Position numbers and translations under genes: made by a program. The notes under the pieces were generated by a model, which saw nothing but the letters and a program-made list of their open reading frames with translations, ran no database searches and was not told where the DNA came from. From Darksidea phi (lineage: Eukaryota; Ascomycota; Dothideomycetes; Pleosporales; Lentitheciaceae), in contig JASJFT010000200.1 in assembly GCA_030770425.1 (NCBI GenBank), forward strand, positions 1 to 64,000: DNA of 64,000 bases, given 5' to 3'. Of this stretch, positions 1 to 64,000 are shown in pieces (position 1 is the stretch's first letter; each line of letters starts with the position of its first letter).

Positions 1-1725
1 ATAGTATTTTATAATATATTAGCTAGTTCTATATATTTAATATTTATTATATACTAGTTATTAGAAAATATCTTCTACGACTACTTCTTTTAGCTCTAAG
101 AGTATTAACTCTTCTATTTCAAGCTCTAGATTTTCTTATTATTAAGAAACTTCCTTAACCTCGTTCTACCTACTAGTATTATACTATATTTTAGGTATTA
201 AGTTAGATTTAATTTTTCTTTTTTTATTATATCTAATTATATTTATACGTTTAGCGCCGTTCTAGCTTCTTATACTTTTTTTTTTTATTATTATATTCTT
301 TAGTAAAGTATCTCTATATATTATAATATAGATATACTTTTTTATCTTAATATTATTTTATTTTATCTACTAGAACTTTCTATAGCTTCTTATCTTACTC
401 GCGTTTTTTATTCTTTAGATATTTCTTTTCCTAAACTATACTAACGTCTATTTTATTATAATCCTTATAGAATCTATACTTTTAAGCTACTTATTCTTTT
501 TTATAGACTTTTATTAGTTTTATAGTATCTTATTTCTTAAATACTTATTTATATAGTCGATTATTAATATAGATTACTATCTTAATTAATTCTACTAGGT
601 CGTTTAATTTTTTAAGTTAAACTAACTTATCTTTAATTAACTTCTTAAGTCTATTATAGTATACGATTATAAAAGATATATTATTCTACTTAATCTTATA
701 CTATAACTATTTAAATTTAATAGTATATATACTTACTAATTTAGTCTATCTTAGCCTTTAGATTTAGTATTTAGTCTACTAGACCTTATTAATATTTTTA
801 AAAACTATATATATTTATTCCTTAAATAAATTCTAATTTTTAAATATTACTTTTATTTCGTTATATTACTTTAATAAGAAGTCCTTATTAGCTATATAAT
901 TATTAATTAGGGGTTATATCTATATAACTACTTTATCTATTATATATATACCTATAATAAGGATCTTATTCTAGTCGCTAGTAAACGTAGTAGAATTAAA
1001 CTAATAGTATAGGTCTAATTATATAAGAAATAGCCTTAAGCCTTTCTTTCTACTATTATATTTCTCTAGTATTAGGATCTTTAACTTTATCCTAAGTCCT
1101 ACTCGTACCTACTATAGTAATTCTTATAGTAATATTATAGTCTACTATAACTTAACTATTTAAGCTACTTATTACTAGATTAGAACTATTAAGTTTATTA
1201 CTAAAGTCTTAGTTATACTCTCTCTAGAGGTATTATATAAGCTAGATAAAGTTACTATATTAATATAACCTTAGTTTAGAGTAGTTAATATATTATATAT
1301 TATATATACCTTTATATAGAATCTAGATTAGGGCTAATAGAATATTTATCGTACTATTAATTTCTAATAGATTAAGATTAAGTTAACGAATTCTATTATT
1401 AGAATAACTACTTAGGAAAAGATTTAATCTTATTTATAAGTATTAGGTAAAGAACTAAAGATTAATTATAAAAAATTAAGATAGAAAACCTAGGAGATCC
1501 TCTACTCTTTTATATCTATTCTACTTTACCTTACTCTACTTACTCTATTCGCTAAGATATAGATTAACTAGATTATTATTAGTTATACTCTATTTACTCT
1601 ATTTACTAAAATATAGATTAACTAGATTATTATTATATAATATTAGATTACTAATTAAGTCTCTATCTTAGCTTTCGACCTTCTTAAGATACCCTATATC
1701 CTATAATTCGTATAGGGTTATAATA
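1..1725 (-). mobile_element. Gypsy-type LTR retrotransposon, truncated copy A (5' LTR plus start of internal region)
   Basis: The reverse complement of this stretch matches the first ~1.7 kb of the complete Gypsy element at 18326-26831. The LTR lies at 1291-1725 (435 bp against 436 bp in the complete copy). The internal 5' region runs from 1290 out of the left edge of the window. The LTR outer end reads gggttataata at 1715-1725, the complement of the tattataac start of the other copies. CpA and TpG are nearly absent, so every frame is full of stops. The copy is dead. It was identified by visual alignment, so point differences were not counted. Confidence 0.8.
1291..1725 (-). repeat. LTR of Gypsy copy A
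   Basis: Minus-strand equivalent of the 436 bp LTRs at 18326-18761 and 26396-26831. It carries the same purine-rich internal tract with tandem agagta/gagtaa words, seen here in complement around 1535-1620. The outer edge is at 1725 and the inner edge at 1291. Confidence 0.75.
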
Positions 1726-2693
1726 AGAAAGTAAGAGAACTAATAGAAGATATTATAGTAAATAACTCTCTATAAGGACTAGAATAGTCTTTAGAAAAGA
1801 GAAAGACTATATTACGTCTACTTCTACTAAAGAACTCTTAGATTATTATTAGCTTAGCTATATATTAAATCCTATATAATTCTACATTCTACTATTACGT
1901 CTTCTTAAGAATTCGTCTTATCTTTATTCGAATATAATCCTTTTACTATCTTAGTATTTCTATACCTATCTACTTATATATATCTTATAATTAAAAAACT
2001 TAATTAGACTCTTAAGCCTATAATAAAAGAGTAGTAAAAGCTTAAGAATAGATTTAGACGGCTAGGATTATATAATAAGCCTAGTAAATAATCTTAATAA
2101 TACTAGAATAAGAAGAATAGGAAGCTTAGCTATAGAATAGGAATAGATATTAACTAATAGTAATATTAATTAAAGGTATTAATTTCTAAACTACTATCTT
2201 TTACTATTAAGTATATAGAGAAACGGCTTAATACTATTATTTAAGAGGATAAGACTTCTTCTTATTCCTATTATACTTAGATATAGGTTTATAGTCTATA
2301 TAATATTTAAAAGCTTCTATAGTATAGGAATTTATTTAATTTAAACGCTATTAAGCTATACTAGCTATAGATAAAGAGATATATAACTAGAAGAGAGGCT
2401 TCTAAGAATAAAGAGAAAGCGATTAGAATATAGAAAAACTACTAGAAGAAACTATCTTAGATTAAGATCTAGGTCTAAATTAAACGAATTCCTATTTATA
2501 TTTAATAGATTATTAAATTAGAAGATAGTAATAAGTATAAAAAGAATAAGCGACTAAGGTAAAATATAGTAATTATAACTATATTATCGAATTAGGATTA
2601 TAATATTAATATTCTTATTAAATAAGAACTTTTAAAATATATCTTTATAATCTATTTATTTATATATAGTATTTATAATAATATACTTTATAA
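1726..2693. other. RIP-saturated AT-rich sequence, family not recognised
   Basis: No open frame of useful length exists on either strand and CpA/TpG are almost absent. A plus-strand reading near 2390-2560 is rich in Lys/Arg/Glu codons, as in the basic tail of a pogo/Fot1-type transposase, but I see no catalytic motif and do not assign it. Confidence 0.5.
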
Positions 2694-2816
2694 GTAAGCT
2701 ATTAATATAAGCGAACTATTAATATAAGTAAGCTATTAATATAAGCGAATTATTAATATAAGTAAGCTATTAATATAAGTAAGCTATTAATATAAGCGAG
2801 CTATTAACCCTATTAA
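2694..2816. repeat. Tandem repeat, ~18 bp unit
   Basis: About seven head-to-tail copies of a unit reading gctattaatataagyra. The copies differ mainly at one site that reads either taa or cga, consistent with C/T transitions from RIP. It lies between the AT-rich block and the Tc1/mariner relic. Confidence 0.75.
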
Positions 2817-2894
2817 CTTTCTAGAACGTATTATTATTAAATTATAATAGCTTAACTAACTATTATTTAATTACTTTATAATAAAGTAGATATG

Positions 2895-3345
2895 GTAGGG
2901 AAGCGCCTACGGGTGGAGCGCGCTAGGAAATCTCTTCGGATTAAGGTTTGATCGTCTAGAGGTACTTCCTTAGGTATACTATTTTATAGACTAGGTAGTA
3001 TAGTATTTAGAAAATAATATCAGACACGCCGTACTTATAGAAGACGGTACTTCTCCGTATACTATAACATACGTGGTATAGACAAGATATACTAGCCTAC
3101 TAATTCTTCGGACCTTAATCCGATTGAGAATATATGGCGGCTGCTAAAGCAAAGAGTAGGTAAGAGGTCTCTACGTACCCTTATAGAGTTAAGGTAGTGT
3201 ATAGAAAAAGAGTAGGTGGCCTTGGAGTTGTCTGATGTCGCTAGATATGTAGGGAGCATGTATAAACGTTGCCAAGCTATAATAGATGCGAAGGGAGGGT
3301 ATACGAAGTGGTTATTTACAGGAAGATATAGATAATTTAAGGATT
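2895..3345 (+). pseudogene. Tc1/mariner transposase relic (C-terminal half)
   Basis: The plus strand at about 3025-3075 reads VLIEDGT, the second-Asp block of a Tc1-like DDE transposase. After a frame change, 3095-3130 reads SSDLNPIENIW, which matches the (S/P)PDLNPIENxW block with the third catalytic residue. The frame runs on to a tga/taa-rich end near 3340, with internal TAG codons where Trp is expected (RIP-type TGG to TAG). Only the C-terminal catalytic half is readable and terminal inverted repeats were not found. It sits directly against the truncated paralogue at 3357-3715 and probably broke it. Confidence 0.75.
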
Positions 3346-9547: not shown

Positions 9548-9774
9548 TTAGCTTCTTTCATTTTTACGAGTACTGGAAATGACCCGTTCAGCCGTAGGGG
9601 AACGTTGCGGGCCGGGTCCGAGCTTCGAAAATCAAAACAACCAAAACACCAACATACCAAAACAACACACGTCAAACGTGGGAACAGTCGCATAGCGCCA
9701 CGTATTGCCCTTGTCCTATTCTCCGTCCCCATTTCTCTAATTACTAGTATTGCATTGTGTACTATCTTCGCTCT

Positions 9775-11130
9775 ATGACGGTTGTCGCGCGCCAGGCCGT
9801 ACGGCCTCCGCAGCCTACGAAGCGGTCGTTGCGACGCGAGATCGTGTTTCGACACCCGGGCTACCCCGAACCAAGCAACGTACTACTTCAACTGCACGCA
9901 TCCGATGAACATTCTGATGGTGACGACGATTTGGGCCATGGGCTTCACGCTCAGTTTGCGCTCGATGCGTGCGGCATAGTCGCTGGGAACCGCTGGGACG
10001 GGTGGCTGTCAGAAAGTCGAGAACAAGCAGCGACGCAAATTGACCCGAACACCGTCCTGAGACGAAGGGGCTACTACTTTCACCTTCCGCAATCATCCTC
10101 ATCTGGCGCACCATACTCCGTGGTCCCCAACTTCAGCGAATGGCGATTCCCACACGACGCGTTGCCTCCCCACTGGCAAGCCATAACCCCCGCACCCGCC
10201 GCTCCCGACGAGCGAACCTTCGCCGCCTCGACCCTCAACAACGCTCTATACAAACGTGATGTATCATGCAGGATAACTGGGTGTCAGGAAGGAACCGAGG
10301 TGGCGCACATTTGCCCCAAGTCGGAGAGGGAATGGTGGGTGAAGAATGGCATGTCTGTCTACACCATCAGCACGGAGCAGACGTTAAATCACCCCGAAAA
10401 TGCGCTTCTCCTGCGAAGCGACCTGCATACCGCTTTTGATGACTCCAAGCTCGCTTTTGTCCCCAAGCCAAGCGGGAATGGGGGACATTGCCTTGTGGTA
10501 CAAGCATTCAAGTCCTCGCCTGAACTGGAGCACCTGTACCACAACCGCGAACTCCAGCCTATACGCTGCAGCGTCGAACTTCTTTTCGCACGTTTCGCCT
10601 GGTCCGTGTTCCCACGGCTCGGTGCTTTTCTGCAGGGCCCTCTAGATCGGCGGCTCCGCTTATGGGTTCATACTTCGGCCGAGGAGGGGACACTGTTCGG
10701 TGAGAGTGGATGTGCAGCGTTTCGGCCCAAGGCTATGCGAGGGCGGTCGGAGAGCCCAAAGAAGCGCAAGCCGAATACGGATCCTGAAGATGCGCATGCG
10801 GATGACATCGACTCGATCGGAGACCGTTCTCCAAAGCGACCGCGCGCCTCATCCTCTCACACTACCCAACAGCTCTCCTCGTCGTTCTCATCCGCGCCTT
10901 CGCTGAGCTCGCCGGAGCTGAAGCCGAAGCCGGAGCCCTTGGCATTGCCATCGCTTCGCGAAATGTGGCTCCAACGGGAGAGTCTCCGATCAGACACACA
11001 AAGGACATGGGAGCGGGATAAGGAATGGGCCGAGGAGGTGTGGAATGGAAAGTCGCTGGATGCGGAAGAGGCACAGAAGTTCTTTGAGATCTGTGGTGTA
11101 GAGGTCTTAGATAACGAAGCGGATAACTAG
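9775..11130 (+). CDS. HNH endonuclease-domain protein (HNH_2 type), 451 aa
   Basis: The frame begins at the ATG at 9775 and stops at 11130 without introns. Around residues 160-230 it shows the fungal HNH_2 pattern: Cys pair (SCRITGC), EVAHICPKSE with the catalytic-type His, then NALLLRSDLHTAFDD with the conserved Asn and His. The N-terminal ~150 residues are unassigned. The C-terminal third is low-complexity, rich in Ser/Pro/Lys/Arg (KKRKPN may serve as a nuclear signal), and ends in a charged helix. Many fungi carry several such genes of unknown substrate. The nuclease role is inferred from the motif alone. The start was set at the first true ATG; the frame stays open 18 bp further upstream. 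Confidence 0.85.
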   Translation: MTVVARQAVRPPQPTKRSLRREIVFRHPGYPEPSNVLLQLHASDEHSDGDDDLGHGLHAQFALDACGIVAGNRWDGWLSESREQAATQIDPNTVLRRRGYYFHLPQSSSSGAPYSVVPNFSEWRFPHDALPPHWQAITPAPAAPDERTFAASTLNNALYKRDVSCRITGCQEGTEVAHICPKSEREWWVKNGMSVYTISTEQTLNHPENALLLRSDLHTAFDDSKLAFVPKPSGNGGHCLVVQAFKSSPELEHLYHNRELQPIRCSVELLFARFAWSVFPRLGAFLQGPLDRRLRLWVHTSAEEGTLFGESGCAAFRPKAMRGRSESPKKRKPNTDPEDAHADDIDSIGDRSPKRPRASSSHTTQQLSSSFSSAPSLSSPELKPKPEPLALPSLREMWLQRESLRSDTQRTWERDKEWAEEVWNGKSLDAEEAQKFFEICGVEVLDNEADN

Positions 11131-15627: not shown

Positions 15628-16464
15628 TCAAAGATTGACCGTCTGACCTCCATGAATAGCCATGTTCGCCGCTTGGTTCGCAATCTTGCTATTGTAATTG
15701 TGGAATGCGGCGCCCTCTTTGTTCTACATCCAAAAGGTTAGCCACCGGGATTTCCTCTTTTGTGTTTCTAATGTACTTACATCGGACCTTATAGCTGCGG
15801 AAATGGCAGCCTCCAAGTCTTTATCTTGGGACCGAACGATGTCGATCAGAACAGACAGAGACTCTACACCAATCTCAGAAACTTCTATCTCGCAAAGTTT
15901 GAGCTGTTCTTGCTTGACAGCTGGAAAGACTTCCGGTAAGTCGCCGACCAGGTCAATGATGTCTTCAATTAACCTCTTGAAATGTTTCTCCTCATACAAC
16001 GCCCACTTCACTTTCTGTAACAGCTTAGTTCCGTTTTGACGCTTAATGGAAAGCTTCCGCATCTTCTTATGTAAGGACTGGCCTAAGTCGTCCATGTCTG
16101 CGTTCACATCGAGGATGGCAAGGTTGGAGTTGTCCGGTTTCACGGAACGCTTATACTTCGCAGAGATTTTCTCGGTATCAGCGAACAGCTCCATGATCTG
16201 ACCAAGCAGCCGTTCTGCCTTAGCTATATCTTCCTGCTGGACTATTGTTTCTTGCAGCGATTGAACTTCTTCCAGGTTGCCGCTCAGACCCACGGCTTGG
16301 CCCCAGCGCGAAAGTCGTAGCCTCGCATTGTCCAATTTGAGCAAGCTGGTCTGGAAATTGGTACCGAAGCTGCGGCCGAGCTGGACATACTCAAAGCAGT
16401 CCACCGCGTTGTTGAAGAGGCCGGCAAGGGCGACGAGGCCGACAGCAAGGCCACCTGTTTCCAT
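15628..16464 (-). CDS. HeLo-domain cell-death effector with C-terminal amyloid-like motif, 259 aa
   Basis: Two exons: 15781-16464 and 15628-15723. The 57 bp intron has a GTAAGT donor, a GCTAAC branch point and a TAG acceptor, phase 0. The start ATG at 16464 sits in ACCATGG. Residues 1-228 are a HeLo domain as in HET-S/HET-s: GLVALAGLFNNAVDCFEYVQ, then LGRSFG and ARLRLSRWGQAVGL, a long helical body and KVKWALYEEKHFKRLIEDI. In HET-S this domain forms a membrane-damaging assembly when a C-terminal prion region is templated. Exon 2 encodes residues 229-259, which contain FHNYNSKIANQAANMAIHGG, a short Asn/Gln/Gly-containing stretch placed where HET-s carries its amyloid motif. The divergent NLR gene carries a matching motif at its N-terminus. 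The length is close to the 289 aa of HET-s. The gene appears intact and free of RIP damage. The role as death effector is inferred from family and context. Confidence 0.92.
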
Positions 16465-17080
16465 GGTGGTGGCTGGTCTAGAAAAGTAGAGACGGGAATA
16501 GACGTATAATTTAAAATAACAGTCCACCGAGGATACGGTTATATTAACTCCAGAAACTCGCTGAGAAGTAACGATGTGTTATAAAGAAGTCGATACCTTG
16601 ACCCAGATCTCTTTCGTTACTGCAGCTGCGGGGCGATGCGCTTTTCAGCTACGGGGTAACGTGTTCCACCACTCAGTAACTCACACCAGGCAGTCACTAG
16701 CCCCAAAAAACCACCAAAAAATCAAAAAATAGCCCCCTGTAACTTCAACAATGGCTTAATAATAAATTCTAAAACTATATATTTAGGTTTTTATATCTAT
16801 TCTATAACTACTATTAGACTCGAGAAGTATTTTATTAAGTAGTTCTAGAGATATAGCAATTTGGCTTGAAATTAAGTCACTGGCTGGTGTGAGTCATTAA
16901 GTGGTGGAACACGTTAAACCTTGAAGCGAGGTCTCACATGACGTTCGCCTTCTCCCATCCTGAGCTGAAGCTGGACGATAGTGCTGCCTTTTAGCCTATA
17001 CAATTCCACTCTGTAAGGCTTGTCTTTGCAACACCCTCGATCAGCCGCTCGGGCGCAATTGTCGCTATGATATCCCGACA
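16465..17080. promoter_or_regulatory. Shared divergent promoter of the HeLo and NLR genes
   Basis: 616 bp separate the two divergent start codons. The head-to-head layout is the usual one for HET-S-like effector and NLR pairs. A MITE occupies 16659-16914, in the middle of the interval. No operator or specific factor site could be recognised. Confidence 0.6.
16657..16916. mobile_element. MITE with ~45 bp terminal inverted repeats and TA target sites
   Basis: The left arm starts acgtgttccaccactcagta at 16659. The right arm is its inverse and ends tggtggaacacgt at 16914, with the inverted match running ~45 bp inward (…actcacacca and tggtgtgagt…). TA flanks both ends (16657-16658 and 16915-16916), as for Tc1/mariner-type insertions. 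The interior is AT-rich and shows RIP-like decay, with no ORF. Confidence 0.8.
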
Positions 17081-18325
17081 ATGAGCGCGTCCCTAGATCT
17101 CCAGCAAGTCAGCTTCACTAACGATGGAGGGAAGGTCGGAATACAGGCCAGCCAATATATTGTGAAAGGGGATAATATCGTGTAGTAATCACAGTCAGAT
17201 CCGTATTCTTGACTTAGCTGACTTAATTCTTTTTTCGCGTTAGAATCGGACACGATCGAGGTCCGCTAGCACTTCTGCCAGATGCGCCAAACGCTGCCTT
17301 CAACGCGTTCGGGAAAGACGACCCTACATGCCTCCTAGGTACTCGAGCTAGCGTTCTTAGCGACATTAGAATATAGATTAATAGAGAAGATAAGCGGTAT
17401 ATCTTCTAGCTAAGTAGCTAGGTAGGTATAGGAAAGTCGATAATTGTATATACGGTCGCCCAGGAATACTATAATAATAACCGACTAGTAGCTAGCTACT
17501 TCTTCTTAAGAGGTGGCGGCGATACTAGTAACGCGATAAAGTTTATTAGTATAATTATTAAGTAACTAGTAGGTAAATTACTAGAGTTTAAAAAGCTACT
17601 TTAGAAAGCCCTATTAGAGGATAAAAGTATTATTCGTCGCGTTTTAAAAGATTAATAGTAGGAACTCGTAACGACGCCGCTATCGTAACTTCTAACTAAC
17701 TCGCTCCCGTTACTAATTATTATAGTAGTTAATATACTAGACGAGTATAATACTAAAAGCGGTATTAGATAGGTAGTATAACTTTTAGCTAGTATTAAAA
17801 ATCTAGATAGGTAATAGTTTTAGGTTTTAATTACGAGTCGACCTAAAGTATCGATTCGTAACGAGTTCTCGCGATTCCTATTAAATAAATAGTAGCTTAT
17901 ACTTTAGGATATATCGCGGCTTATCGTTAATAATCGGTTTAGAAGATAAAGTCGTTATATAGCTTATACGAAGAACTATAGGCCTATTTATCTAGGCCGT
18001 AACTATTTATCGATTTATTTATTAAGGGTTATCCCTTAAGAAGAGGCTTTATATTATTCTCGTAGGCTCCGACTCTACTCTTATATTAAATTATTATATT
18101 ATTAGAATACTAGTCTAGAACGCGGGTTATCTTTAATTCTAGATAGTAGTCGTCTATAGCTTTATCTATAAAGGTATACTAGTTAGATAATCGCTATAAA
18201 TACTTATTATAGGTAATACTATACTAGAGGATTATCTTAACGAGATCTACTTAACTATTCTAGATAATTCTCTACGTACGAGCTTTACTTAATAAGATAT
18301 TATAGACTTTTATAGTATAGTAAGA
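17081..18325 (+). pseudogene. NACHT-WD40 NLR gene, 5' part (motif exon and NACHT domain), RIP-damaged
   Basis: The ATG at 17081 opens a first exon of ~35 codons with FTNDGGKVGIQASQYIVKGD, which aligns without gaps to the C-terminal motif of the HeLo protein. A short intron follows: acceptor TAG at 17241-17243, donor near 17180-17185, where a TAG codon may be a RIP-altered CAG. From 17245 the frame reads LLPDAPNAAFNAFGKDDPTC, the usual lead-in to a fungal NACHT. Walker A is GIGKS (17425-17439), followed by YFFLRGGGD, a Walker B-like VVNILDEYN and ITSRP (~17828). In-frame stops begin near 17367 and are all of the RIP type. The gene is interrupted at 18325 by a Gypsy element and resumes at 26832. 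In HET-S/NWD2-like systems the NLR nucleates the effector after ligand sensing; this copy cannot. Confidence 0.88.
18321..18325. repeat. Target-site duplication, left (taaga)
   Basis: The five bases before the 5' LTR are repeated exactly after the 3' LTR at 26832-26836. Confidence 0.85.
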
Positions 18326-18761
18326 TATTATAACTCTATATAAACTATAGGATATAGAATATTCTAAGAAGGTTAGAAGCTAAGATAAGGACTTAGTTAG
18401 TAATCTAATATTACGTAATAATAATCTATTTAATCTATACCTTAGTAAGTAGAGTAAATAGAGTATAATTAATTATAATCTACTTAATTTATATCTTAAC
18501 GAATAGAGTAAGTAGAGTAAGATAAAATAGAATAGATATAAGAGAGTAAAGGATCTCCTAGATTTTCTATCTTAATTCTTTATAGTTAATCTTTAGTTCT
18601 TTACCTAATACTTATAAATAAGATTAAATCTTTCTCCTAAGTAGTTATTTTAGTAATAGGATTCGTTAACTTAATCTTAATCTATTAGAAACTAATAGTA
18701 TAATAAATATTTTATCGACTCTAATCCGGATCCTATATAAAGGTATATATAATATATAATA
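18326..18761 (+). repeat. 5' LTR of the complete Gypsy element
   Basis: Starts tattataactc and ends aatatataata; the canonical TG...CA ends would read TA...TA after RIP. It matches the 3' LTR over its whole length with scattered C/T and G/A differences. Confidence 0.88.
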
Positions 18762-21700
18762 TATTAACTACTCTAAACTAAGATTATATTAATATAGTAA
18801 CTTTATCTAGCTTATATAATATCTCTAGAGAGAGTATAACTAGGACTCTAGTAATAAACCTAGTAACTCTAATCTAGTAATAAGTAGCTTAGATAGTTAA
18901 GTTATAGTAGACTATAATATTATTATAAAAATCGCTATAATAGATATAAGTAGGACTTAGGATAAAGTTAAAGATTCTAATACTAGAGAAATATAATAGT
19001 AGAAAGAAAGGCTTAAGGCCGTTTCTTATATAATTAGACCTATACTATTAGTTTAACTCTACTATATTTACTAGTAACTAGGATAAGATCCTTATTATAG
19101 ATATATATATAATAGAGAAGGTAGCTATATAGATATAACCCCTAATTAACGACTATATAGCTAATAAGGATTTCTTATTAAAGTAACGCGACGAAATAAA
19201 AATAGTATTTAAAGATTAGAATTTATTTAAGAAATAGATACGTATAGTCTTTAGAGATATTAATAAGGTCTAATAGGCCGAATACTAGATCTAAAGGCTA
19301 AAGTAGACTAAATTAACGAGTATATATACTACTAAATTTAAATAGCTATAGTATAAGATTAACTAGGATAATATACCTCTTATAGTCGTATATTATAATA
19401 GACTTAAGAAGCTAATTAAGGATAAGTTAGTCTAACTTAAAAAATTAGACGATCTAGTAGAACTAATTAAGATAGTAATTTATATCGATAATCGACTATA
19501 CGAATAAGTACTTAAGAAGTAAAATATTATAGAACTAGTAAGGGTCTATAGAAAAGAGTAAATAGCTTAAAAGTATAGGTTCTATAAGGGTTACGACGAA
19601 ATAGACGTTAATATAATCTAAAAAAAGAAATATCTAAAGAATAAGAAATATAAGTAAGGTAAAAAGTTATAGAAAGTTCTAATAAATAAGATAAGATAAT
19701 ATTAAGAAGAAAAAGTATATCTATACTACGATTAATAGAAATACTTTACTAAAGAATATAGCGACGAGAAAAAAAATATAGATAGTTAGAAAGGCGCTAG
19801 GTATATTAATATAATTAGGTAGAGTAAGAAAAGAGCTTTAGAATCTAATTTAATACCCGAATAGTAGTTTAATACTAACGGGTAGGATAAGGTTAAAGAA
19901 ATTACTCGATAATAAGACCTAAAGCTCGAGATAGAAGAACTAAAGCTCGACGAGCTAGATAAGGTTAGTATAGAAGACGTTTTTCAACGATTAGTATATA
20001 ATAAATACTAGAAATATAGAACTAGCTAGTATATCGCCGAATATTATATCGATACTAAGAAACCGATATATATTATAGGAGATCGAGGTTAGTAGATAAT
20101 AGACTAGACCCTAAAACTCTAGGGACTAGAAGATTATAAGATAATCTAGAACTATAATAATATAGACTATAATACGCTATTATAGACGAACTATATAGAA
20201 AATTATAAATATTATACTAGGTAAAAAGAAGAAATTATAATACTTCTAAAAGACCGATTATATATATATCTACGAAACGTAGAATATCTAATAGTAGGAT
20301 ACTATATCTATAATTATAATAATTAGACTAAAGAATATAAAGACTAGAGATAGCTAGAATAGAATAGCTACTACGACGATAAATATAAAAAGTACTTTCT
20401 AATAAAATATACTATAGGACGATAGCTACGTAGACTAACTAGGGTAGATACTAAGAACTATAAGTAGGATATTAACTATAGAATTATATATAAGAAATCT
20501 AACTATAAAGTCTTATATTAGATATACTATAAAAGGGTATATATTCTATACCTAGTATAAAAAGAACTTATAGCTAGAAGAGAAGAGGATATCTTCTACT
20601 AGAATCTTAAAAGAAGGGAATACCTTATAGAGTAGTACGGGTAGTATAGCTATCTAGTATAGAATAGAGATAGTTTAAAGAATCTAAAAATTAGTAAATA
20701 GCTAAGGGCTCTAGATATATAGTAGGGATACTATAATATCTAGAACGATAAGATAAGTATAAAGTCTATTAACTAGGATATACTATTACTAGATAAAGAT
20801 CTAAAAATAGAGCTATAATAGATACTAAGCTAGGAAATACCTTATAGAATCGAAAAAGAAGAAAGTCTAAAGTTAGAATAGTTAGGCGAGTTACCTCTCT
20901 AATAAAATACTTAAAAGATAGAGAATACCCCCAAGGAATAGAACCTCTATAATAATAAACTAAAAAACTAGATTATTATTAACTATACTAAAGTTATACT
21001 AATAAAAGTATCTAAAAGATAACTCTACGAATTATATAAGAGGGTATCTAATAACTAACTAAATTAAAGGTAGACGCGCGGATTTACGAATAGAAAGTCT
21101 AAGCTATTATAAATAGTAAAGTAGAGTTTATACTCCTATTATTAAAATTAGTAAAAAAATATAAGATTTCTTATTAAATTAAAGAAAAACCTATATAAGT
21201 AGACCTTAGAGATAGATTATCTATAAAATATAAAGAAGGTATAATTTACCTTAAAATATAAAAAGTAACTCTAGAGATAGAGAATATTAAAGACTATTAT
21301 AGATTTAATATTATAGAAATCGAAGATACTAATATAATTATTAGTTATAATTAACTAATAAAATATAATTTATAGATAGATTAGAAGCTATATAAAGTAC
21401 TAGGCTATAAATAGGTAGCTCGAGTTATAGAAATTAGAAGACTAGGTAGATCTAGCTATAAGATCTAGTATATATCCTAGAAAGGGAGAATAGATTTAAT
21501 TTTATCTTATAAGATTATAAGAATCTATAAGAAGAATTTATAAAAAGTTAGTATTATTATAGTATAAAGAGTCGCGACCGCGTAGAAAGAACTATAACTA
21601 ATAATATCTTAAAACTATAAGAAATTTTAAGAGCTATTTAAGAAATATCTAGATATAAATTTACTAGAGTACTAGAAATAAAATTATAAAATATATCTAG

Positions 21701-21839
21701 AAAAGGGTATAAAGCTTAAGCCTAGACCTATATACTCGTTAATAGTAGATTAATAAAAAGAATTAAAAGAGTACTTAACGAAGAACTTAGAAAGAGAATA
21801 TATTAGAGAAAGCTAAAGCTCTATAGTATTACTAGTTCT

Positions 21840-22210
21840 ATTTATTTTAAAAAAGAATAGAAAGTTATAACTTTATATAGACTATAGACGTTTAAATAAT
21901 ATTATAAAGAAAAATAAATATCTACTACTATTAATTAGAGAACTTATAGACTAGTTCTAAGGAGTTAAGTAGATTATAAAATTTAATATCTAAGACGGAT
22001 TCTATAGGATTTAAATAGTAGAAGGGTATAAAAAGTATATAGTATTTAAAACCTAATATAGACTCTATAAGTATAGAGTTATACCCTTTAGACTAATAAA
22101 TATACTAGCGATATTTTAGTTAGTTATTAATAGGACGTTAAATAAATACTTAGATATATTCTATATAGTATATCTAGATAATATTCTTATATATAGTAAA
22201 GAAATACTAG
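21840..22210 (+). pseudogene. Reverse transcriptase region of the Gypsy element
   Basis: Readable blocks in one frame are: an LYIDYRRLNN-type box near 21870, YKYRVIPF near 22070, and VYLDNILIYSK at 22168-22200. These are the consecutive conserved boxes of Ty3/Gypsy reverse transcriptase. Stops and the Asp to Asn change in YLDD show it is inactive. Confidence 0.85.
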
Positions 22211-23446
22211 AAGAATATAAGAAATATATAAAGAAAGTATTATAAAAGTTATAGTAAAATAAGTTACTACTTTACCTAGATAAATACGAATTCTATAGAA
22301 TAGAAACTAAATATCTAGATTTTATTATTTTATAAGAAGAAGTATCTATAGACTTTAAGAAAGTATAGACTATAAGAAAGTAGTTAATCCTAATATTAGT
22401 TAAGGATATATAATCCTTTTTAGAATTTACTAACTTCTACTAGAAGTTTATTAAGAATTACTTAAAGACTATATCTCTACTTATAGAGGTAACTAAGAAG
22501 GAAAAAAATTTTTAGTAAAACTAGAAATAATAAGAAGCTTTTAATAAGCTTAAAAGTTTATTTATATTAATACCTATACTATAAATATATAATTTAATAA
22601 AATCTCTTAAAGTAGAGATAGATATATTAGACTACGTATTAGGGATAATACTTATCTAATAAGAAAAAGATAAAAAATAGAGACTAGTATTCTACTACTT
22701 ATATAAGTTTAGTAAGAAAGAAATAAACTATAATATTTATAATAAGAAACTTAGTACTATTATATTAATATTTAAATAATAAAGATTATAACTTATAGAA
22801 GTTAAGTATAAAATTAAGGTTATTATAGACTATTAGAACCTTATAAGTTTTATAACTATAAAGAAACTTAATTAATAATAATTCTAATAGTCGAAATTAC
22901 TAGTAGATTATAACTTTAAAATAAGTTACTAGTTAGGAATACTAAACGAAGTAGTAGATACTCTTAGTAGAAGATTAGATCTTTAAAATATCGATAAACC
23001 CGTTATATATAAACTAGTCCTATAAAAGAAATTAAATAGAACTCTTATATATAACTATATAAGGCTAGCTAAGATTATAGTAGTAGTAGATATTAAGAGA
23101 AAATAAAGGAATAAGATCCGAGAAACTATTAGGGACGCTAATAGAATACTAGAGAAAGATAATATATACTTTAATAAGGAAGAATACTCTACTCTAATAA
23201 ATAACTTAGAAATAAGACCTTATATACTACTAAGCCTTAAAGAAGACTTAATATAGGAAATCTATAAAAGTAAAATACTAGAATATCTAGATATTAACGA
23301 AATAGTTAGATATATAGATAAAGAATATCTACTTACTAATATAAGAGAGAAAGTTTAGAAAGTAATAGATAACTATTTAGAATATTCTAAGAATAAACCT
23401 AAAAGATATAAGCCCTATAGATTACTCTAACTATTAGTACTATCTA

Positions 23447-24589
23447 TTATTATTATTTTTTAATATATAGAGGTATAAAGCTAAAATCTAAAAATTATAT
23501 AAATAGGTATAGCCCTCTACCCGAGTTATATAAAAGTATTAATATATTATTTTATATAATTCGCGCGTTCGATAGTATAAATAGGCCTAGTAGTTCTTTA
23601 GATATACGATTATCGCGTACTACTTAGATTATCTTAAAGGCCGAACGGCGGAACTACTAAGCCCTAATTAGGACTAGTAGCTATAGGACGTTTCTATAAA
23701 ATAGCCTAATATCGAATAGCCTATATATAAGAATATTAAGTACTCCCTCTACTTCCTTACGTATACCTCTACTTACTAAATATAAGATAACTTCCTATAT
23801 CGTCTTTATAGATTACTACTTCGTTCTATTTTAATCTATAGGTATACTTATACGTCGTATTATCCTCTATAACTTTAGAGTAGACGCCGCCTACGTATAT
23901 AAATATCTAGACTACGAACTTAATAATATTATTAACTACAATTATACCTTCTAGAAGGAAGAATATAGTAAGCTTATAATTATAGAGCTATAGCTTACGT
24001 ATATAAAGGGTCGGTTCGTATATCTACTAAATATACTATAAGTAGTATAGGTTTATTAGCTTAGTATCTACTTAATATACGTTAAGGTAGATAAGGATAA
24101 TAAAAAGAACTTTCTTAAATAGTAGCTATTAAAACTAAACTAGCTTACTAAGAATCTTAGGGTTCTATAGAAAGATAAAGTAGCGAATTTTCTAGAGAGG
24201 GATCTCTAGACGAAGGAGAGTATAGAGTATATAGCGAAGGTACTTTAAGCTATCTATAGGTTTTAAGATATAAAGAAGATTAAAGAGATAAAGGCGAAAG
24301 TAATAAAGTAATAAAAGGCCGAAGCGGAGAAGGAGTTAGTAGTATAGGGTAAGATTAATAAAGACTATTCGATTTATATATATAGATTTAAAAGATAGTA
24401 AAAGAAAGAGGAAGAGAAGAAGGGGAATAATTATTAGTATTTTATAGTAATTACTTAGTATTAACGTAGCGGAAATTATTATAGTATACTAATTCTTTCC
24501 TATACTTAGTTAGTAAGATTAAATAAGAGTATATAATAGAATATTATATAAAAGAGTTTATATAACGGCCTAAGTCTAGTACTATCTAT
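23447..24589. mobile_element. Candidate nested insertion inside the Gypsy integrase region
   Basis: The word tagtactatctat occurs at 23434-23446 and again at 24577-24589, flanking ~1.1 kb. The integrase text reaches NKPKRYKPY just before the first copy, and the DDE-core text (DFIVKL, then VIIDRLTK) resumes after the second. The interval holds more CpG-containing words than its surroundings. It may be a nested insertion or simply a long spacer in this family. Confidence 0.3.
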
Positions 24590-26380
24590 ATAACTATAGA
24601 CTTACGTTATAATAGACTTTATAGTAAAGTTACTACTATTATTAAAACTAGAATTAGGAAGATTATATAATACTATTATAGTAATTATAGATCGATTAAC
24701 TAAGGTAGTATACTTTATTCTAATAAATAAAGTAATTATAGTAGAAAATATAGCTTATAAGGTTAAAAGAATACTTATTACTAACTATAGATTATTAGAA
24801 TAGATTCTTATAGATAGAGATAAACTATTTACTTTAAAATTTTAGAGTATACTACTTATAAAACTAGAAATTAAAAGAAAACTATTAACTAGCTTCTACC
24901 TATAGATAGATAGTTAAATAAAACGAATAAACTAAACTCTAGAGAAGTATTTAAGGTTCTACGTTAATAAGTTATAAAATAATTAGATTAAATTACTACT
25001 AATAATATAATTAATATATAATAATAAGAAATTTATAATAACTAAATACTTACTATATTATATAAACTACGGATATAAACTAATAACTTATAGAGATCTA
25101 AAGGATATTAAAAGTATATCTACTAAAGTAGAAGAAAAGATCTATTTAATATAAGAATTATATAAAGAACTTAATATATAAATAGTATATAGAAATCTTA
25201 TAATAGCTAAAATAATAAATAAAAGAAGACTTAAGGGACCGACCCTTAAAAGGGGGGATAAAGTTTTCCTTTTATAATAAAATCTAAAAACTAAATAACT
25301 ATATAATAAACTAGATAATTTATAAATCGAACTATTCAAAATTAAAGAAAAAATAGGACTAGTTAACTATAGGCTAAAGCTAGCTAAAGATATAAGAATA
25401 TACCTAGTATTCTATATATTATTACTAGAACTAGTACTAGAAAATACTAAAGTAGCTACTAATATCGAACTCGAAGATAAGAAGTATAAGGTCGAGGAAA
25501 TCTAGAAATTATAAAGGTTTAGATATTAGTAAAAGTATTTAATTAAGTAGGTAGAATAGTCTACTAGTTAAAGTATATAGAAACTAATTAAGAACTTATA
25601 AAGCTACTAGAACCTAGTTAAGTAGTATTACTAAAGACGCTTAAAGGTAGAGGCTTTTAACTATTTAGAAAAGTAGAAAAGTTAGTAGACTTATATAGTA
25701 AGGGTTACTATAGTAATATAGACGGACTAGAAGAAGTAGACTAAATAGTTTCTATCTATTCCGACTTTTCTAACTTAGAAATTAAGACTAGCTTCTAATT
25801 AAGAAGTTTATACTAATAGATATTATATTAAACTAGTTATATATAGATATACTATTTATAAGTCTAAGTAACTAACTTCTTATTTTTAGTAGACTCTAGT
25901 TTAGATAGGAGTTAAGAATATTCTTTCTTAATATAAGTAAGGGACTTATTAGTTATTACTAGACTATAAGAAATATTCTAAGAGAGATATTTACTATAAT
26001 AAGTAGAAGATAGTAGTATCTTATATTTATAGCTAGTAAATTAATAATTTAAATATAATTAAGCCGGTAGTATTATATAACTAGAATAAAGGATATAGTA
26101 GATAAGACGAAGACGATAAGTTATAGAAGTCTTAGAACCTTTAGATATTATTAGAATCTAGAAGAAAAATAAAGAATAGGGCTTAGATATTTATAAAGTA
26201 GAATACTACCTACTCTTATATCTAGATAGGGGGCGGAATAACTAGAGTACTAGACTAAGAAAAGAATTACTAATACGTATATACGAGTTATAGTATAGTA
26301 TAAAAAGAATTATTAGAGTAGCTAGACTAATACTAAATAGGGTTATAGAAAGAAAAACGTAACTTTAAGAACGAAGCTTC

Positions 26381-26395
26381 GAAGGGGGGAGCGAG
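26381..26395 (+). other. Polypurine tract of the Gypsy element
   Basis: A purine-rich run ending gcgag lies directly upstream of the 3' LTR. It fixes the plus orientation of the element. Confidence 0.75.
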
Positions 26396-26831
26396 TATTA
26401 TAACCCTACGCGAACTATAGAATATAAGATATTCTAAGAAGATTAGAAGCTAAGGTAAGGACTTAGTTAGTAATCTAATATTATATAATAATAATCTATT
26501 TAATCTATATCTTAGCGAGTAGAGTAAATAGAGTATAACTAACTATAATCTACTTAATCTATATCTTAGTAAATAGAGTAAGTAGAGTAAGGCGAAATAG
26601 GATAGATATAAGAGAGTAGAGGATCTTCTAGGTTTTCTATCTTAATTCTTTATAGTTAATCTTTAGTTCTTTACCTAATACTTATAAATAAGATTAGATC
26701 TTTCTCCTAAGTAGTTATTCTAGTAATAGGATTTATTAACTTAATCTTAATCTATTAGAAACCAACGGTATAATAAATATTCTATTAGTCCTAACCCGGA
26801 TTCCGTATAAAGATACGTATAACGTATAATA
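26396..26831 (+). repeat. 3' LTR of the complete Gypsy element
   Basis: Starts tattataaccc and ends aacgtataata, 436 bp. It is slightly less RIP-altered than the 5' LTR, keeping cctacgcgaa where the 5' copy has ctatataaa. Confidence 0.88.
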
Positions 26832-26836
26832 TAAGA
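26832..26836. repeat. Target-site duplication, right (taaga)
   Basis: Exact repeat of 18321-18325, directly after the 3' LTR. Confidence 0.85.
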
Positions 26837-27654
26837 GACGTACTTAGAAGTATTATTATACTTTTCTTTTCTCTTTTAGTTAAGTCGCTAAGTAATTTAC
26901 TATTAAAATTAGAGAAAGAGGTTACTTAGATAATAAAAGATCTTTATATACTTTTAGATATACTAAAGAATATTACCTATACTTTCTATCTATATTATCT
27001 ATTCTTATAAGAATTTCTTCTTAGTAGTTAAAGGTATTACGACTTATACTTTTAGGTAGACGAGAAGTAGATATATTACGCGCTACTTAATAGCTATCTC
27101 CGGCTTTTATCTAAATTACTAAAGTAGGATATTTATAAGCTAAACGCTCCGGGAATACTTATAGCTAAGATCGAGAGTAATCGAGTAGAATAGTATATCT
27201 TACTAGAGCTCTAGTATATATATTACTACTAGGTACGGTATCTCTAGAAGAGCGGTACCCGTCTTTAGAATAGAGATAGAATATACCACTTCTTATAAAA
27301 GTATCTACTCTACTAGCTAGAGGCGCTCGGCTGGATGGGTAAGGTATTAGAAGGAATCTATATAGTATCGGATCTAGAGTCTATAACGGCGATAGTAAGC
27401 AGGCTTAGTAAGGGTAGTATATTTTACTAACGTATATAGTAGAGGTCTAAGTACCGCCGATTATTAGAATATATTTACGACGCTCGGCGATTCGTCCTAT
27501 CTAGCGGGTAAACGATCGAGTATACTCCGCTCTAGATATATAGTAGCGCCCTTATGTTCGTACTAGTGAAGAGTATAATAAGGTAGTAGTTTATAAGCTG
27601 TATACCGGAATGGATAGAATAACTACCGAAGATGGAGAATGATTGGAGCGCGTT

Positions 27655-29035
<1,381 letters not shown>

Positions 29036-58901: not shown

Positions 58902-59138
58902 CCCTGAGGAAAAGCTGTATTGCGTAACTATACTATTATAGGGGAGTTTTTCTACTTAATAATAAACTATATATATCTAAAGACTAGTACTAAAATTTTA
59001 ACTATATATAAAAAGAGTAGAACGCTTAATATTAACTAACCGTAGAATAGTAGGTAGCTAATACTAGCTTTATCCGATACAAGTCTTAATACGTAGCCTA
59101 GAGAAAGAGGGTAGAATATAGAAGAGAGGAACTACTAG

Positions 59139-59232
59139 AACTAAGGGATACGAACTAAGGGATACGAACTAAGAGATATAAATAAAGGGATACGAACTAA
59201 GGGATATAAACTAAAGAATACGAACTAAGAAA
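59139..59232. repeat. Tandem repeat, ~15 bp unit
   Basis: About six copies of a unit reading aactaagggatacg, some changed to agatata or gaatacg by transitions. Confidence 0.8.
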
Positions 59233-59829
59233 GTAGTACTTATCTACTATACTAAATAGTTATATACGAAGGTATAAAAGATTATCTATTTAATAATCGA
59301 ATACTATATACTATATAAAGTACGATAAATCGACTAATCTTCTACGATAAGCTAAATATTATCTACTAAACTACGATTATCTACGTTAGCGATATCCTTA
59401 AAAAAGCGAAGGAACGTTTAAAGAAGAAGCTATAAGAATTAAAATTAAGGAATAAGAGGGTAGTAGATCTAGATAGTACTAGAATATTACGTCTTCTTAT
59501 CTTTAATAGCGAGGTCCTTCTTTAGGCGCTCGGTATAGTATATCCGTATTAACGTAGGAATATAACTAACTAGCGATATAGACTTAACTCTAATAAACGA
59601 TACCTTTATTCGCGATTAGAATATAAGACTATAATAGATAATTAGTAATACTAATCTAGATACCTAATTCTTTAAGTCCTTAGTAGAGTATAGAGGATCC
59701 GAATAGCTAGCGAATACCTTAGTAATTAAGGCGGTAATATAAAAGTAAGAGGGAGAGAAGGCTAGTAGAGTTTCGTACTAGAATTAGAAAAGTTTACTAA
59801 TTATTATATAATTAAACTATATAATATTT

Positions 59830-60582
59830 ACCTATAGGTCTTAGTCGAGATACCTAGTAGAGTTAAATTAATAGTATAAGTCTATTTATATAAGGAATAG
59901 CTTTAAATCTTCCTTATTATTATTATATCTCTTAGATATCTTAACTTTTACTTTATTACTAAGTCCTACTTTTATTTATTATAGCGCTTCTTATAGTAAT
60001 ATTATAACTTATTATATCTTTACTATTTAAGCTACTTATTACTATATAAGAGTAGTTAGATTTATTATTAAAGCTTCTATTATACTTTCTCTAAAAGTAT
60101 TATATAAGCTAGATAGAATTACTATATTTAACGTAATCTAGATTTAAGGTAGTTAATATATTATATATTATATATACTTTAATATAGGATTTAGATTAGA
60201 ACTAATAGTATATTTATTATACTATTAGATTTTAATAGATTAAGGTTAAGTTAATAAATTCTATTACTAGAATAACTACTTAGAAAAAGATCTAATCTTT
60301 ATTTATAAGTATTAGATAAGAACTAAAGAATTAATTATAAGGAATTAAAATAGAAAGTCTAAGAGATTCTCTACTTTCTTATACCCGTCCTTATTCCTTA
60401 AGATAGTAGTAGTAGTAACTTCTATAGCTTCTACTACTTCTATAGTAATTATAGAAGTAGTCCTCTTAGTAACTTCTATAACTTCTAAGTTACGTAATAT
60501 TAGATTACTAACTAAATATAGCTCGACTATTCTAGCTATATTAGAGCTTACTCTATACCCTTCTAGTCCTAGGGTTATAATA
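59830..60582 (-). mobile_element. Gypsy-type LTR retrotransposon, truncated copy C
   Basis: Minus-strand match to the start of the element at 18326: LTR at about 60159-60582 (outer end gggttataata) and ~330 bp of internal sequence at 59830-60158. It is more diverged than copy A, with small indels and a taactt/ctactt-rich insertion near 60405-60490. Confidence 0.7.
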
Positions 60583-62832
60583 TTAAGCTTACTTATATTA
60601 TTCTTAAAGATAATTTTATAGTTAATACTTTTTCTTTTAAAGAATAACTTATCTAAGTTAACTTTAAAGAAATAGTTTAGAGTAGCTTCTATATAATCTT
60701 TATAAGAGAGCTTCTTTACTATTATATCTTATATATTCTATTCCTTTAAGTCTTTTAATTATCTATTTCTAATTAATAAGTTAACTTTATATAGATTAGT
60801 AGCTTTTAGTATAATTTCTTTCTTATTTATAAACTTCTATATATTAAAAGACTTAAAAAAATATATATTAAACTTATTACTAGTAGCCTACTCTAGTAGG
60901 TTATTAGGGATAGGTATTACTTTTTTTTTCTTTTTATTATTTTTTTAGTAATCTTATTAGTTTTTCTTAGATTTAGTACCTCTTAAACTATTATTAGTAT
61001 TACTATCTATATTCCTCTATATATTTTTAGAAGTAATTTACTAATTCTCTATTATTTATAGTAGAGCTTTAGTAAACTTATAGACCTCCTTTTAGAGAAT
61101 TATAAGAACTTTAATAGGAATTTCTAAACTAAGTATTAGATTCTTTTTAAGTAAATAGATCTTCTTCTATACTTTAATTTACTAATTAATTAGATTATTA
61201 TAATATAAAGTATTATTCTAGTATTTTAGCTTTAGCTTCGGATCTAGCTTCTCTATAGTAATTAGATTATATTTTATCTACTTTAGAATATCGTTTAGCT
61301 AGTATAAAGTTTAATTATAATAGTTAATTAAGAATTAAATTTACTTAAGGAATTTTCTTCTAAATATTATATTATAATATTTAAGTTTATAGAAGAGAAA
61401 CTAAATAAATATATTCTTTTTCTAAATTAATAGATTAGCTTAGCTAGTTATATCGACTAAATAACTATATTTCCTATTAAATCTATTAAGAGGGATTAGT
61501 TTCTTTAGTTAATAGAAGATAGATTTTAGCTTTTTCTTTACTACCTTTAAATATTTAGAGTAGACTAATAGATATATACTAATACTACTATTTACTAATC
61601 CTCTTAGTTATATAGCTAGACTATTTACTATAAGTTAAATAAAAAGTATAAATAATTTTAAATTAATAAGTTATAGTATCTTAATAAGCTATTAATAATT
61701 AAGAGGTTTAATTACTCCTATATAAACTACTAGGAAGAAACTCTTTCCTAATAGTTTTTATTTTTTAATACTATAGAGGAGGTATTAGAGTTATATTCTA
61801 AACTACTTTCCTCTTTATATAGAGAGTCTAAATAAGCTTCTTTCTTAGAATTATTAGAAAAGATAATATTAATTTTTACTTTTATAATATTTTATATTAC
61901 TTTATATATAATATAATTAGGATAGTTTTACTACTTATTTCTTTTCCTATAATTAAAGTAATAGTCTTACTTTTTATACTTCTTAAAAGAGTAGTTATAG
62001 AGCTTAGATATATTTTTAAAATAAATAAACTTCTTTTTTAATTTATTAGAAAAGGGTCTACTTATAGTTAGCTACTTTCTCTTAAAGATAGCTAATTAGT
62101 TACTTTAAACGAGCTAGATCTTTTAGTACTAGTTATTCTTAAGTAGTACTTTATTAGTTAAAGTTATATATTTATAGAGCTTACTAAAAGTAAAATTACT
62201 ATTATTAAATAGATCTATCTTATTTTTTAGATCGAAGTAGAGCTTATCTATAAATTCTTTATTTTACTAATAGTAAAATAGATAAACCTTTATTATTAAA
62301 TACTTAAAATTTTTAATAAAGTTATTAACTTTACTAAATACGTTTATATATAATTAGTAGAATTTAACTTTTATCTTTTTCTTTACGTAGAGATTTTTAT
62401 AATAGCTTTTAATATATTCTAATAAATCTATATTAAATATAAAGTCTACTTCTTTCTTCCTAAAGTTTAGTTATATTCGAATATAGTCTTTTACTAAATC
62501 TACTAGTTAGGATATAATATAGACTTAATAGATTTTAGCTATCTACTAGAGGATTTCTTATATATACTAGTTCTTATTAATAGTAAGTTTTTATTTTATA
62601 TTATAGAGCTAGTTTTTTAACTTAGACTCTCTATTATTTTTAAATAAAATAGAATCGAGGTAGAATATAGTCTTTCGGGAGCTAAAGATTTATAAGAAGT
62701 TACTCTAGTAGTTCTTTATAATATTCTCCTTCTAAATAAAAATCTATATTCTATTACTTAAAGTAATAGTTATAAATCCTAATAAGACTAATAAGAACCT
62801 TATAGAGTAGATACTATAGTATATAGGTATAT

Positions 62833-62905
62833 TAGAGATAGGGTAGCGGAGCTTACGACCTATAGTCGGAGGGATAGAAGGGAAGGGTTAATAGAATAGG
62901 TAGCT
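62833..62905. repeat. Dispersed repeat shared with 49398-49470, RIP-altered copy
   Basis: gggtagcggagcttacgacc followed by tatagtcggagggatagaag. Compared with the 49 kb copy it shows mainly C to T and G to A changes. Confidence 0.6.
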
Positions 62906-64000
62906 AAAATTAATTAATTAAACTATTTCTTCTATCTACTATATAATAGGATAGATAATAAATACTAGCTAAAGACTCTCCTAGATAATACCCTTTTAGA
63001 GTCCGGCCTAACGTTTTACTACTTATCTAAGCCTTTAATACTCGATTAAGAGGCTCCCTTTACTACTATACTATATTTTCCTTCTTAACTAAAAGAGCTT
63101 AGCCCTCTTAAGCTCTACTACCCGATTAAGTAACTCTATATAATACTAGTACGTTATTAATAGTAAATCCTATTACTAGTCTATTAAGGATCCTTCTTTA
63201 AGTAATCTCTATCTTTAAACAGCCCTCGAGAAGCTATTAATAGACCTTTTATTTCCCTCCTCCTTAGTAAATAGACTATAGTCTAATCTTAATACCTCTT
63301 TCTTCCTAGGATCTTTAATAATAAGTCGGTATAATTATAAAGGTAAGCTTTCTCTAACTAGTCTAATATATTATTATAAAACTAACTAATCTTTAATCTA
63401 GTCTTAACTTTTTAATAGGCTTCCTTACCTTTATATAGTCCTTAAACTCTTACCTAACGACTTTATAATAATATTTATAAATAAGTCTTTAAATACTCTT
63501 ACTTTAACTTCTTTATAGTTAGTAACTAGCTAAAACGTATATAAAAGGCCTCTTCTAATACTCTCTTAAACTCTTTAACTTTCTCCTTATAGCTACTCTT
63601 CTTATCTACTAGCCTAATAGCCTTTTAAGCCTCTAGCTTCTTAGTCTCTAAGTCTCTTACTTCTTCTTCTAGCTATATCTAGTAAGGGCGTTACTATTAA
63701 CCTATCTACGGGTAGTACTACTATAGACGCCTCTAGTAGTAGTAGTAGTATCTAGTACTCTTCTAACTAGCCTCTAGGAGGTAGAAAAGACGACTAAGAA
63801 TCGAAGCTCTATAACTATTCTTTAATAATAGCTAATATTACTATCCTAGAGTAGCGTAAGTTTTCTCTCTTTCTAATTAGTTATTATTTATATTAATTTA
63901 TTAATAATAACCCTATAAGCTAATTAAATTATTAATTAAGCTTTTTAAATTAACTTTAACTAAGATTTCTATAATATTAAGTATTAGGGTATCCCTCTAG

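What the first reader, a model, noticed from the sequence alone, without database searches (positions are those of the whole stretch)
15628..17180. Matching short motifs on a HeLo effector and its divergent NLR: a candidate amyloid-signalling pair
The last exon of the HeLo gene encodes FHNYNSKIANQAANMAIHGG (residues 235-254). The first exon of the divergent NLR encodes FTNDGGKVGIQASQYIVKGD (residues 12-31). Aligned without gaps, 6 of 20 positions are identical (F, N, K, Q, A, G) and two more are I/V swaps. In HET-S/NWD2, HELLP and related systems the NLR N-terminus templates an amyloid fold onto the effector C-terminus, and the genes are adjacent. Position, exon structure, gene orientation and motif match all fit. 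I cannot assign the motif to a named class (HET-s repeat, sigma, PP), so it may be a variant or a new type.
Basis: partly seen in the sequence, partly recalled or inferred. Interest (0 to 1): 0.92.

Follow-up and report, generated by a model that had tools for sequence, protein, structure and literature searches.

The report
Fungal death-switch pair, receptor gene broken
A fungal cell-death gene and the immune-receptor gene beside it carry matching short tags that fit no published class we could test, and similar pairs appear in other fungi, but in this genome the receptor gene has been destroyed by a jumping element and mutation.

Summary
A HeLo gene (15628-16464, minus) ends in its own exon coding FHNYNSKIANQAANMAIHGG; the head-to-head gene at 17081 starts with an exon coding FTNDGGKVGIQASQYIVKGD. 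Alone, the 6/20 match is modest (13 of 5000 shuffles reach it). Homologues make it strong. A conserved tail (named NSK here) ends 21 of the 120 HeLo homologues listed. Two annotated NLRs of other genera start with the window's motif, and an NSK-tailed HeLo lies on a scaffold of exactly the same length in each species. Receptor and effector profiles built without the window align in register (hhalign P=4.6e-8). Neither motif scores against a PP model. Most likely this is a HET-S/NWD2-like switch: the NLR N-terminus templates the effector tail and releases a pore-forming domain. Amyloid formation is untested. Correction: the neighbour is a NACHT-WD40 gene that is dead here, split by an LTR element of at least 8.4 kb and full of RIP-type stops; exon 1 escaped. 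The effector has no detected partner in this genome. I rate it a new variant of a known kind. The receptor motif may already be listed, unpaired, as NLR39 in PMC9815663.

The parts
15781..16464 (-). HeLo effector gene, exon 1 (residues 1-228, HeLo domain)
   Evidence: PF14479 E=1.1e-51; exon limits; a homologue (P0002) matches PDB 2wvn small s protein E=7.1e-38
15724..15780 (-). HeLo intron, 57 nt, GT-AG (predicted)
   Evidence: several metagenome gene calls of homologues run on past the same place as if into an intron (by eye)
15628..15723 (-). HeLo exon 2: C-terminal tail and stop
15646..15705 (-). effector-side motif FHNYNSKIANQAANMAIHGG (residues 235-254)
   Evidence: 57.1 bits against a profile of 19 tails from elsewhere; conserved in homologues
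16657..16916 (.). MITE-like element between the two genes (42-nt inverted ends)
17081..17181 (+). NLR exon 1 (predicted)
   Evidence: two NLR motifs of other genera each hit only this place in the genome
17114..17173 (+). receptor-side motif FTNDGGKVGIQASQYIVKGD (residues 12-31)
   Evidence: 41.9 bits against a profile of the two foreign NLR motifs
17182..17243 (+). NLR intron, 62 nt, GT-AG (predicted)
17244..18328 (+). NLR NACHT region, 5' part, broken by stops and one frame change
   Evidence: matches P0121 residues 6-238 and 250-392 with 27 stops; PF24883 E=1.4e-9 on the part read with X at stops; RIP indices
18326..26695 (.). LTR element inserted in the NLR (direct repeats 18326-18625 and 26396-26695, 91% alike)
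   Evidence: repeat family with 41 matches listed, 40 of 257 candidates scored
26828..27421 (+). NLR NACHT region, 3' part, 13 stops
   Evidence: matches P0121 residues 389-585
27612..28499 (+). WD40 repeats of the NLR, 126-nt period; the repeat search ended at 28500 and the translation shows more

Best explanation
The locus descends from a two-gene cell-death switch that works like HET-S/NWD2. A NACHT-WD40 NLR carries a short motif (NSK) at its N-terminus, and the head-to-head HeLo effector carries the cognate motif on its own C-terminal exon. When the NLR oligomerises, its clustered motifs fold, most likely into a cross-beta arch, and template the same fold in the effector tail; that frees the HeLo domain to damage the membrane and kill the cell. 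Inferred from HET-S/NWD2: amyloid fold, templating, pore formation. In this genome the NLR was split by an LTR element and mutated by RIP, so the effector is now an orphan at the sensitivity used.
For: Tail conserved: 21 of 120 listed HeLo homologues carry it; motif columns average 0.64 against 0.37 in the linker before them. Two annotated NLRs begin with the receptor motif (P0178, P0209; 11 of 20 identical to the window each) and have an NSK-tailed HeLo (P0053, P0033) on a scaffold of the same length (3244807, 2118044). Eight HeLo/NLR pairs share exact contig lengths against a mean of 0.49 per nonzero offset within 200 bp, highest nonzero offset 4; all eight HeLo proteins fall on the NSK side of the tree. 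Cognate motif scores: 0 of 5000 shuffles for both foreign pairs, 13 of 5000 for the window. Profile to profile without the window: P=4.6e-8 over 24 ungapped columns. The receptor profile ranks eight NSK or NSK-like tails next after the receptors among 241 proteins. The two foreign NLR motifs each hit one place in this genome, window exon 1 (E=0.0067, 0.0029). Method control: contig C54 holds a PP-tailed HeLo beside a gene with a PP motif and an NB-ARC-like stretch.
Against: No fibre or templating test was possible. The effector profile scores the window NLR only weakly (2.4 bits, E=2) and an unrelated NLR, P0162, scores above P0178. Own-partner preference ranks 1, 3 and 8 of 19. Contig identity is inferred from equal length; adjacency on the two long scaffolds is not shown. 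Distances of HeLo and NLR correlate over eight pairs (r=0.81, p=0.0018) but less with the window (r=0.49, p=0.017). Only three receptor motifs are known. The AlphaFold model was too poor to use (mean pLDDT 55).
Confidence: 0.72

Rival explanations
1. NSK is a diverged PP (RHIM-like) motif rather than a class of its own; the pair works like PNT1/HELLP.
For: P0178 and P0209 read GxQxG at the core (GAQIG, GIQAG), as do some NSK tails; the receptor profile has a faint match to PP (P=0.0024 over 9 columns); P0116, with a PP-like tail, is the first branch on the NSK side of the midpoint-rooted tree.
Against: NSK tails against PP tails give P=0.11; neither window motif scores against the PP model or PF17046; spacing from F to Q is 10 in NSK and 9 in most PP tails (by eye).
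Confidence: 0.35
2. The motifs are a docking or oligomerisation pair that is not amyloid; the NLR recruits and activates the HeLo effector by ordinary binding.
For: No amyloid evidence was gathered; sequence pairing alone would also fit.
Against: Layout, position and effector domain are those of systems for which amyloid signalling is shown (PMC5485727, PMC4518210).
Confidence: 0.15
3. The resemblance of the two window motifs is chance; the HeLo tail has another role.
For: The window pair alone is only at the 0.003 level.
Against: Two foreign pairs, profile P=4.6e-8, single-place genome hits.
Confidence: 0.04

Closest known systems
HET-S/NWD2 of Podospora anserina (HRAM1)
   Same: HeLo effector with C-terminal motif beside a NACHT-WD40 NLR with N-terminal motif
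   Different: HRAM effectors carry two repeats of 21 residues with a fixed hydrophobic pattern (PMC4518210); here one copy and no such pattern. The receptor is broken here.
PP motif (PF17046, misnamed Ses_B; PMC12261475)
   Same: single copy about 20 residues, GxQxG-like core in some members, found in the sister HeLo clade and in a pair of this genome
   Different: no N-x-G-x-Q-x-G-x-N in the window motifs; no PP profile hit; K-I/V before the core and a G eight residues after Q
NLR39 of PMC9815663
   Same: receptor motif described as G-hydrophobic-Q-hydrophobic-G, length 24, 20 NLRs, filed near PP
   Different: that paper's table lists no neighbours and 2 effectors for it; its profile was not available, so identity with NSK is open
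PUASM and GDQN motifs (PMC9815663, PMC12261475)
   Same: short single motif pairing an NLR N-terminus with an effector C-terminus
   Different: effectors are PNP_UDP and SesA; patterns FxGxGxQxxGxGxF and NxxxGxQYxxxGxGDQNxV are not met by eye

Membership tests
HeLo effector (PF14479) | HeLo domain by curated profile | tested here: met
   E=1.1e-51, 176.1 bits against a cut-off of 23.2
NWD-type NLR | NACHT domain followed by WD40 repeats | tested here: met
   PF24883 E=1.4e-9 on the read-through part; 126-nt WD repeats from 27612; the gene is broken
Fungal NLR/effector amyloid pair | adjacent genes sharing a motif at NLR N-terminus and effector C-terminus | tested here: met
Fungal NLR/effector amyloid pair | amyloid fold and templating | not testable with these tools
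   needs fibre and seeding tests
HRAM (HET-s motif) | two pseudo-repeats on the effector | tested here: not met
   exon 2 codes 31 residues with one copy; no PF11558 hit listed at E<=10
HRAM (HET-s motif) | G19 with hydrophobics at 5, 8, 10, 16, 18 (PMC4518210) | tested here: inconclusive
   by eye, F as position 1 (my register): effector I8 and perhaps A16; receptor V8, I10, I16; G19 in both
PP motif | N-x-G-x-Q-x-G-x-N or profile hit | tested here: not met
   no hit for either window motif with a model of 44 PP tails or PF17046
[quoted passage not shown]
   tail exon of 31 residues, one copy
PUASM | FxGxGxQxxGxGxF with a PNP_UDP effector (PMC9815663) | tested here: not met
   effector is HeLo; pattern absent by eye
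NLR39 (PMC9815663) | its published profile | not tested

The most novel reading that the evidence does not exclude
NSK is a distinct, so far unnamed class of fungal amyloid signalling motif linking HeLo effectors to NACHT-WD40 receptors in Pleosporales and relatives, and this genome shows an effector outliving its receptor: a HeLo protein with intact motif and no detected NLR, which may now act by itself as a prion-like incompatibility determinant, as [Het-s] incompatibility needs no NWD2.
Probability: 0.25. Interest if true: 0.8.

Novelty: new variant of a known kind. Interest (0 to 1): 0.6.

Why it matters
The papers read name few fungal amyloid signalling motifs (HRAM, PP, sigma, PUASM, GDQN). 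A further paired motif would widen the code by which receptors choose death effectors. It sits in a HeLo clade beside a PP-tailed clade, so motif replacement in one effector lineage can be traced. The broken receptor is a natural test of whether HeLo effectors keep a role without their NLR. The motifs are short, so fibre and cross-seeding tests are cheap.

Tried and rejected
AlphaFold of homologue P0053 in an alignment of 31 gave mean pLDDT 55 and was not used for a fold search. A read-through query of the NLR's first 130 residues found one protein of 837 candidates, P0121, which lacks exon 1. Scanning viral contigs with P0121 found no relative. A motif pattern over 48 loci found the motif only in the window copies among plausible hits; the N-terminal stretches of five NACHT paralogues (L040, L041, L043, L044, L045) were read and none showed it. 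HRAM, PP, sigma and PUASM were considered and rejected as in Membership tests. Five motif strings were in no paper of the library; four terms together (amyloid signaling, Dothideomycetes, HeLo, NLR) gave none; none of the 11 papers listed holds the word Pleosporales. Supplements could not be read, so an unnamed earlier listing of the motif is not excluded.

Papers seen: PMC9815663 (abstract, outline, sections 6, 19, 24, 33, 55, passages), PMC5485727 (parts 1-2 of 4), PMC4518210 (parts 1-2 of 5), PMC12261475 (abstract, outline, section 3.3), PMC7885112 (three passages), PMC12258605 (twelve passages). All others: search listings with abstract beginnings only.

Full report
What is there. The window lies in contig C114 of a 51-Mb genome in 477 contigs. 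By content it is a filamentous fungus: its HeLo protein is 84% identical to one of Clohesyomyces aquaticus. The minus-strand gene at 15628-16464 has two exons and codes 259 residues; exon 1 is the HeLo domain and exon 2 the tail. The plus-strand gene starts at 17081 with a 101-base exon coding the second motif, then a 62-base intron. The 616 bases between the ATGs hold a MITE-like element.

The receptor is broken. A metagenome homologue of NLR exon 2 (P0121) matches the window in three stretches: 17242-17937 (its residues 6-238), 17933-18328 (250-392) and 26828-27421 (389-585), with 40 stops in all. Residues 392 and 389 meet, so one insertion explains the gap. Direct repeats at 18326 and 26396 (300 bases, 91% alike) belong to a family with 41 matches listed, 40 of 257 candidates being scored. 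In 200-base windows the (CpA+TpG)/(ApC+GpT) index falls from 1.15 at 17101 to 0 at 17601 and stays there, with TpA/ApT above 1.3, as RIP leaves DNA (RIP signature recalled). Exon 1 and about the first 100 bases of exon 2 keep ordinary composition. WD40 repeats of 126 bases follow from 27612. The gene was thus of NWD architecture: motif, NACHT, WD40.

The effector tail is a conserved motif. Of 464 HeLo homologues (1854 candidates), 120 were listed. Of the 120, 21 carry the NSK tail, some cut short (19 by pattern; P0015 and P0017 added by eye), and 44 a PP-type tail (pattern); the other 55 show neither, many being gene calls that run into the intron. In 18 aligned NSK proteins (window included), motif columns average 0.64, the linker before them 0.37, the HeLo domain 0.74. 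A 78-row tree of HeLo domains splits in two with support 96/95: one side holds 21 of 22 NSK rows (window included), the six tail-less HeLo rows that share contig lengths with NLRs, six ungrouped rows and one PP-like row, P0116; the other holds 43 PP rows and one NSK-like row, P0044. The root is only a midpoint, and since tail-less rows counted as a group of their own the NSK label needs five changes. PF17046, labelled Ses_B, is the PP motif (PMC12261475).

The receptor motif exists elsewhere. A search with P0121 gave 2452 NLRs, 120 listed. At their N-termini two annotated ones, P0178 (Paraphaeosphaeria sporulosa) and P0209 (Byssothecium circinans), begin with the window's motif, 11 of 20 identical to it each. 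Many of the rest are intronless gene calls that would lack exon 1 and cannot be judged; other annotated NLRs in the list begin differently. Contig lengths of the two lists coincide exactly in eight cases, against a mean of 0.49 and a maximum of 4 at nonzero offsets within 200 bp: P0033/P0209, P0035/P0139, P0053/P0178, P0060/P0137, P0063/P0131, P0069/P0132, P0073/P0128, P0107/P0133. Five of these contigs are under 7.5 kb, so the genes are neighbours if the contigs are the same. Only in the first and third pair are both motifs readable.

How good the match is. Pair scores exceed all 5000 shuffles for Paraphaeosphaeria and Byssothecium, and all but 13 of 5000 for the window. Identities over 20 positions are 8, 10 and 6; Byssothecium has HVHG and Paraphaeosphaeria NV.G on both sides. 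Profile to profile, receptor motifs (2 rows) and effector motifs (18 rows, window left out) align over 24 columns with P=4.6e-8; receptor against PP gives 0.0024 over 9 columns and NSK tails against PP tails 0.11. The receptor profile puts eight NSK or NSK-like tails next after the receptors among 241 proteins. Against this: the effector profile finds P0209 (E=3e-4) but P0178 (E=0.33) and the window NLR (E=2) only weakly, and an unrelated NLR, P0162, scores above P0178. The three NLR motifs rank their own effector tail first, third and eighth of 19. HeLo and NLR distances correlate over eight pairs (r=0.81, p=0.0018), less with the window (r=0.49, p=0.017): the window NLR is nearest to partners of another HeLo branch, so pairing is not strictly vertical, or RIP distorts it.

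In this genome. The two foreign NLR motifs each hit one place, window exon 1, and the HeLo tail hits only itself. The first look of that tool passed one candidate in each case, so weaker copies could be missed. Upstream stretches of about 56 of the 155 NACHT matches were held and scanned with the receptor profile; the only hit below E=0.5 was window exon 1. So the effector looks orphaned, within that sensitivity. As a method control, C54 carries a PP-tailed HeLo beside a gene with a PP motif and an NB-ARC-like stretch.

Mechanism. By analogy with HET-S/NWD2 (PMC5485727, PMC4518210), NLR oligomerisation would nucleate a cross-beta fold that templates the effector tail and frees the HeLo domain. 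The analogy rests on layout, motif position and effector domain; folding, templating and killing are inferred. That it works like HET-S/NWD2 is likely; that it is HRAM or PP failed the tests made here. Whether NSK is a class of its own, a far PP variant, or the unpaired NLR39 of PMC9815663 stays open.

Noticed in passing
window 16657-16916: MITE-like element with 42-nt inverted ends in the shared promoter region; 70 matches listed in the genome (40 of 42 candidates scored).
   Followed up: partly
window 18326-26695: The LTRs lie 8070 bases apart here, but about 6.92 kb apart in several other copies, so something of about 1.15 kb may be nested inside this copy.
   Followed up: no
window 1-3000 and 59001-64000: Further AT-rich blocks with RIP-type indices at both ends of the window.
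   Followed up: no
L003 (C54:37101-40706): A canonical PP pair: HeLo with a PP tail beside a gene with a PP motif and an NB-ARC-like stretch.
   Followed up: partly
L043 (C359, NACHT paralogue): The upstream frame reads SGRHNNGTQAGHN, a PP-like core (12.5 bits, E=0.074), so a close NACHT relative may carry another motif class.
   Followed up: no
P0044 (Coniosporium apollinis, partial): NSK-like tail on a HeLo domain that falls in the PP clade: motif exchange or convergence.
   Followed up: no
window 9748-11130: Open frame of 460 codons between stops that looks HNH-endonuclease-like by eye.
   Followed up: no
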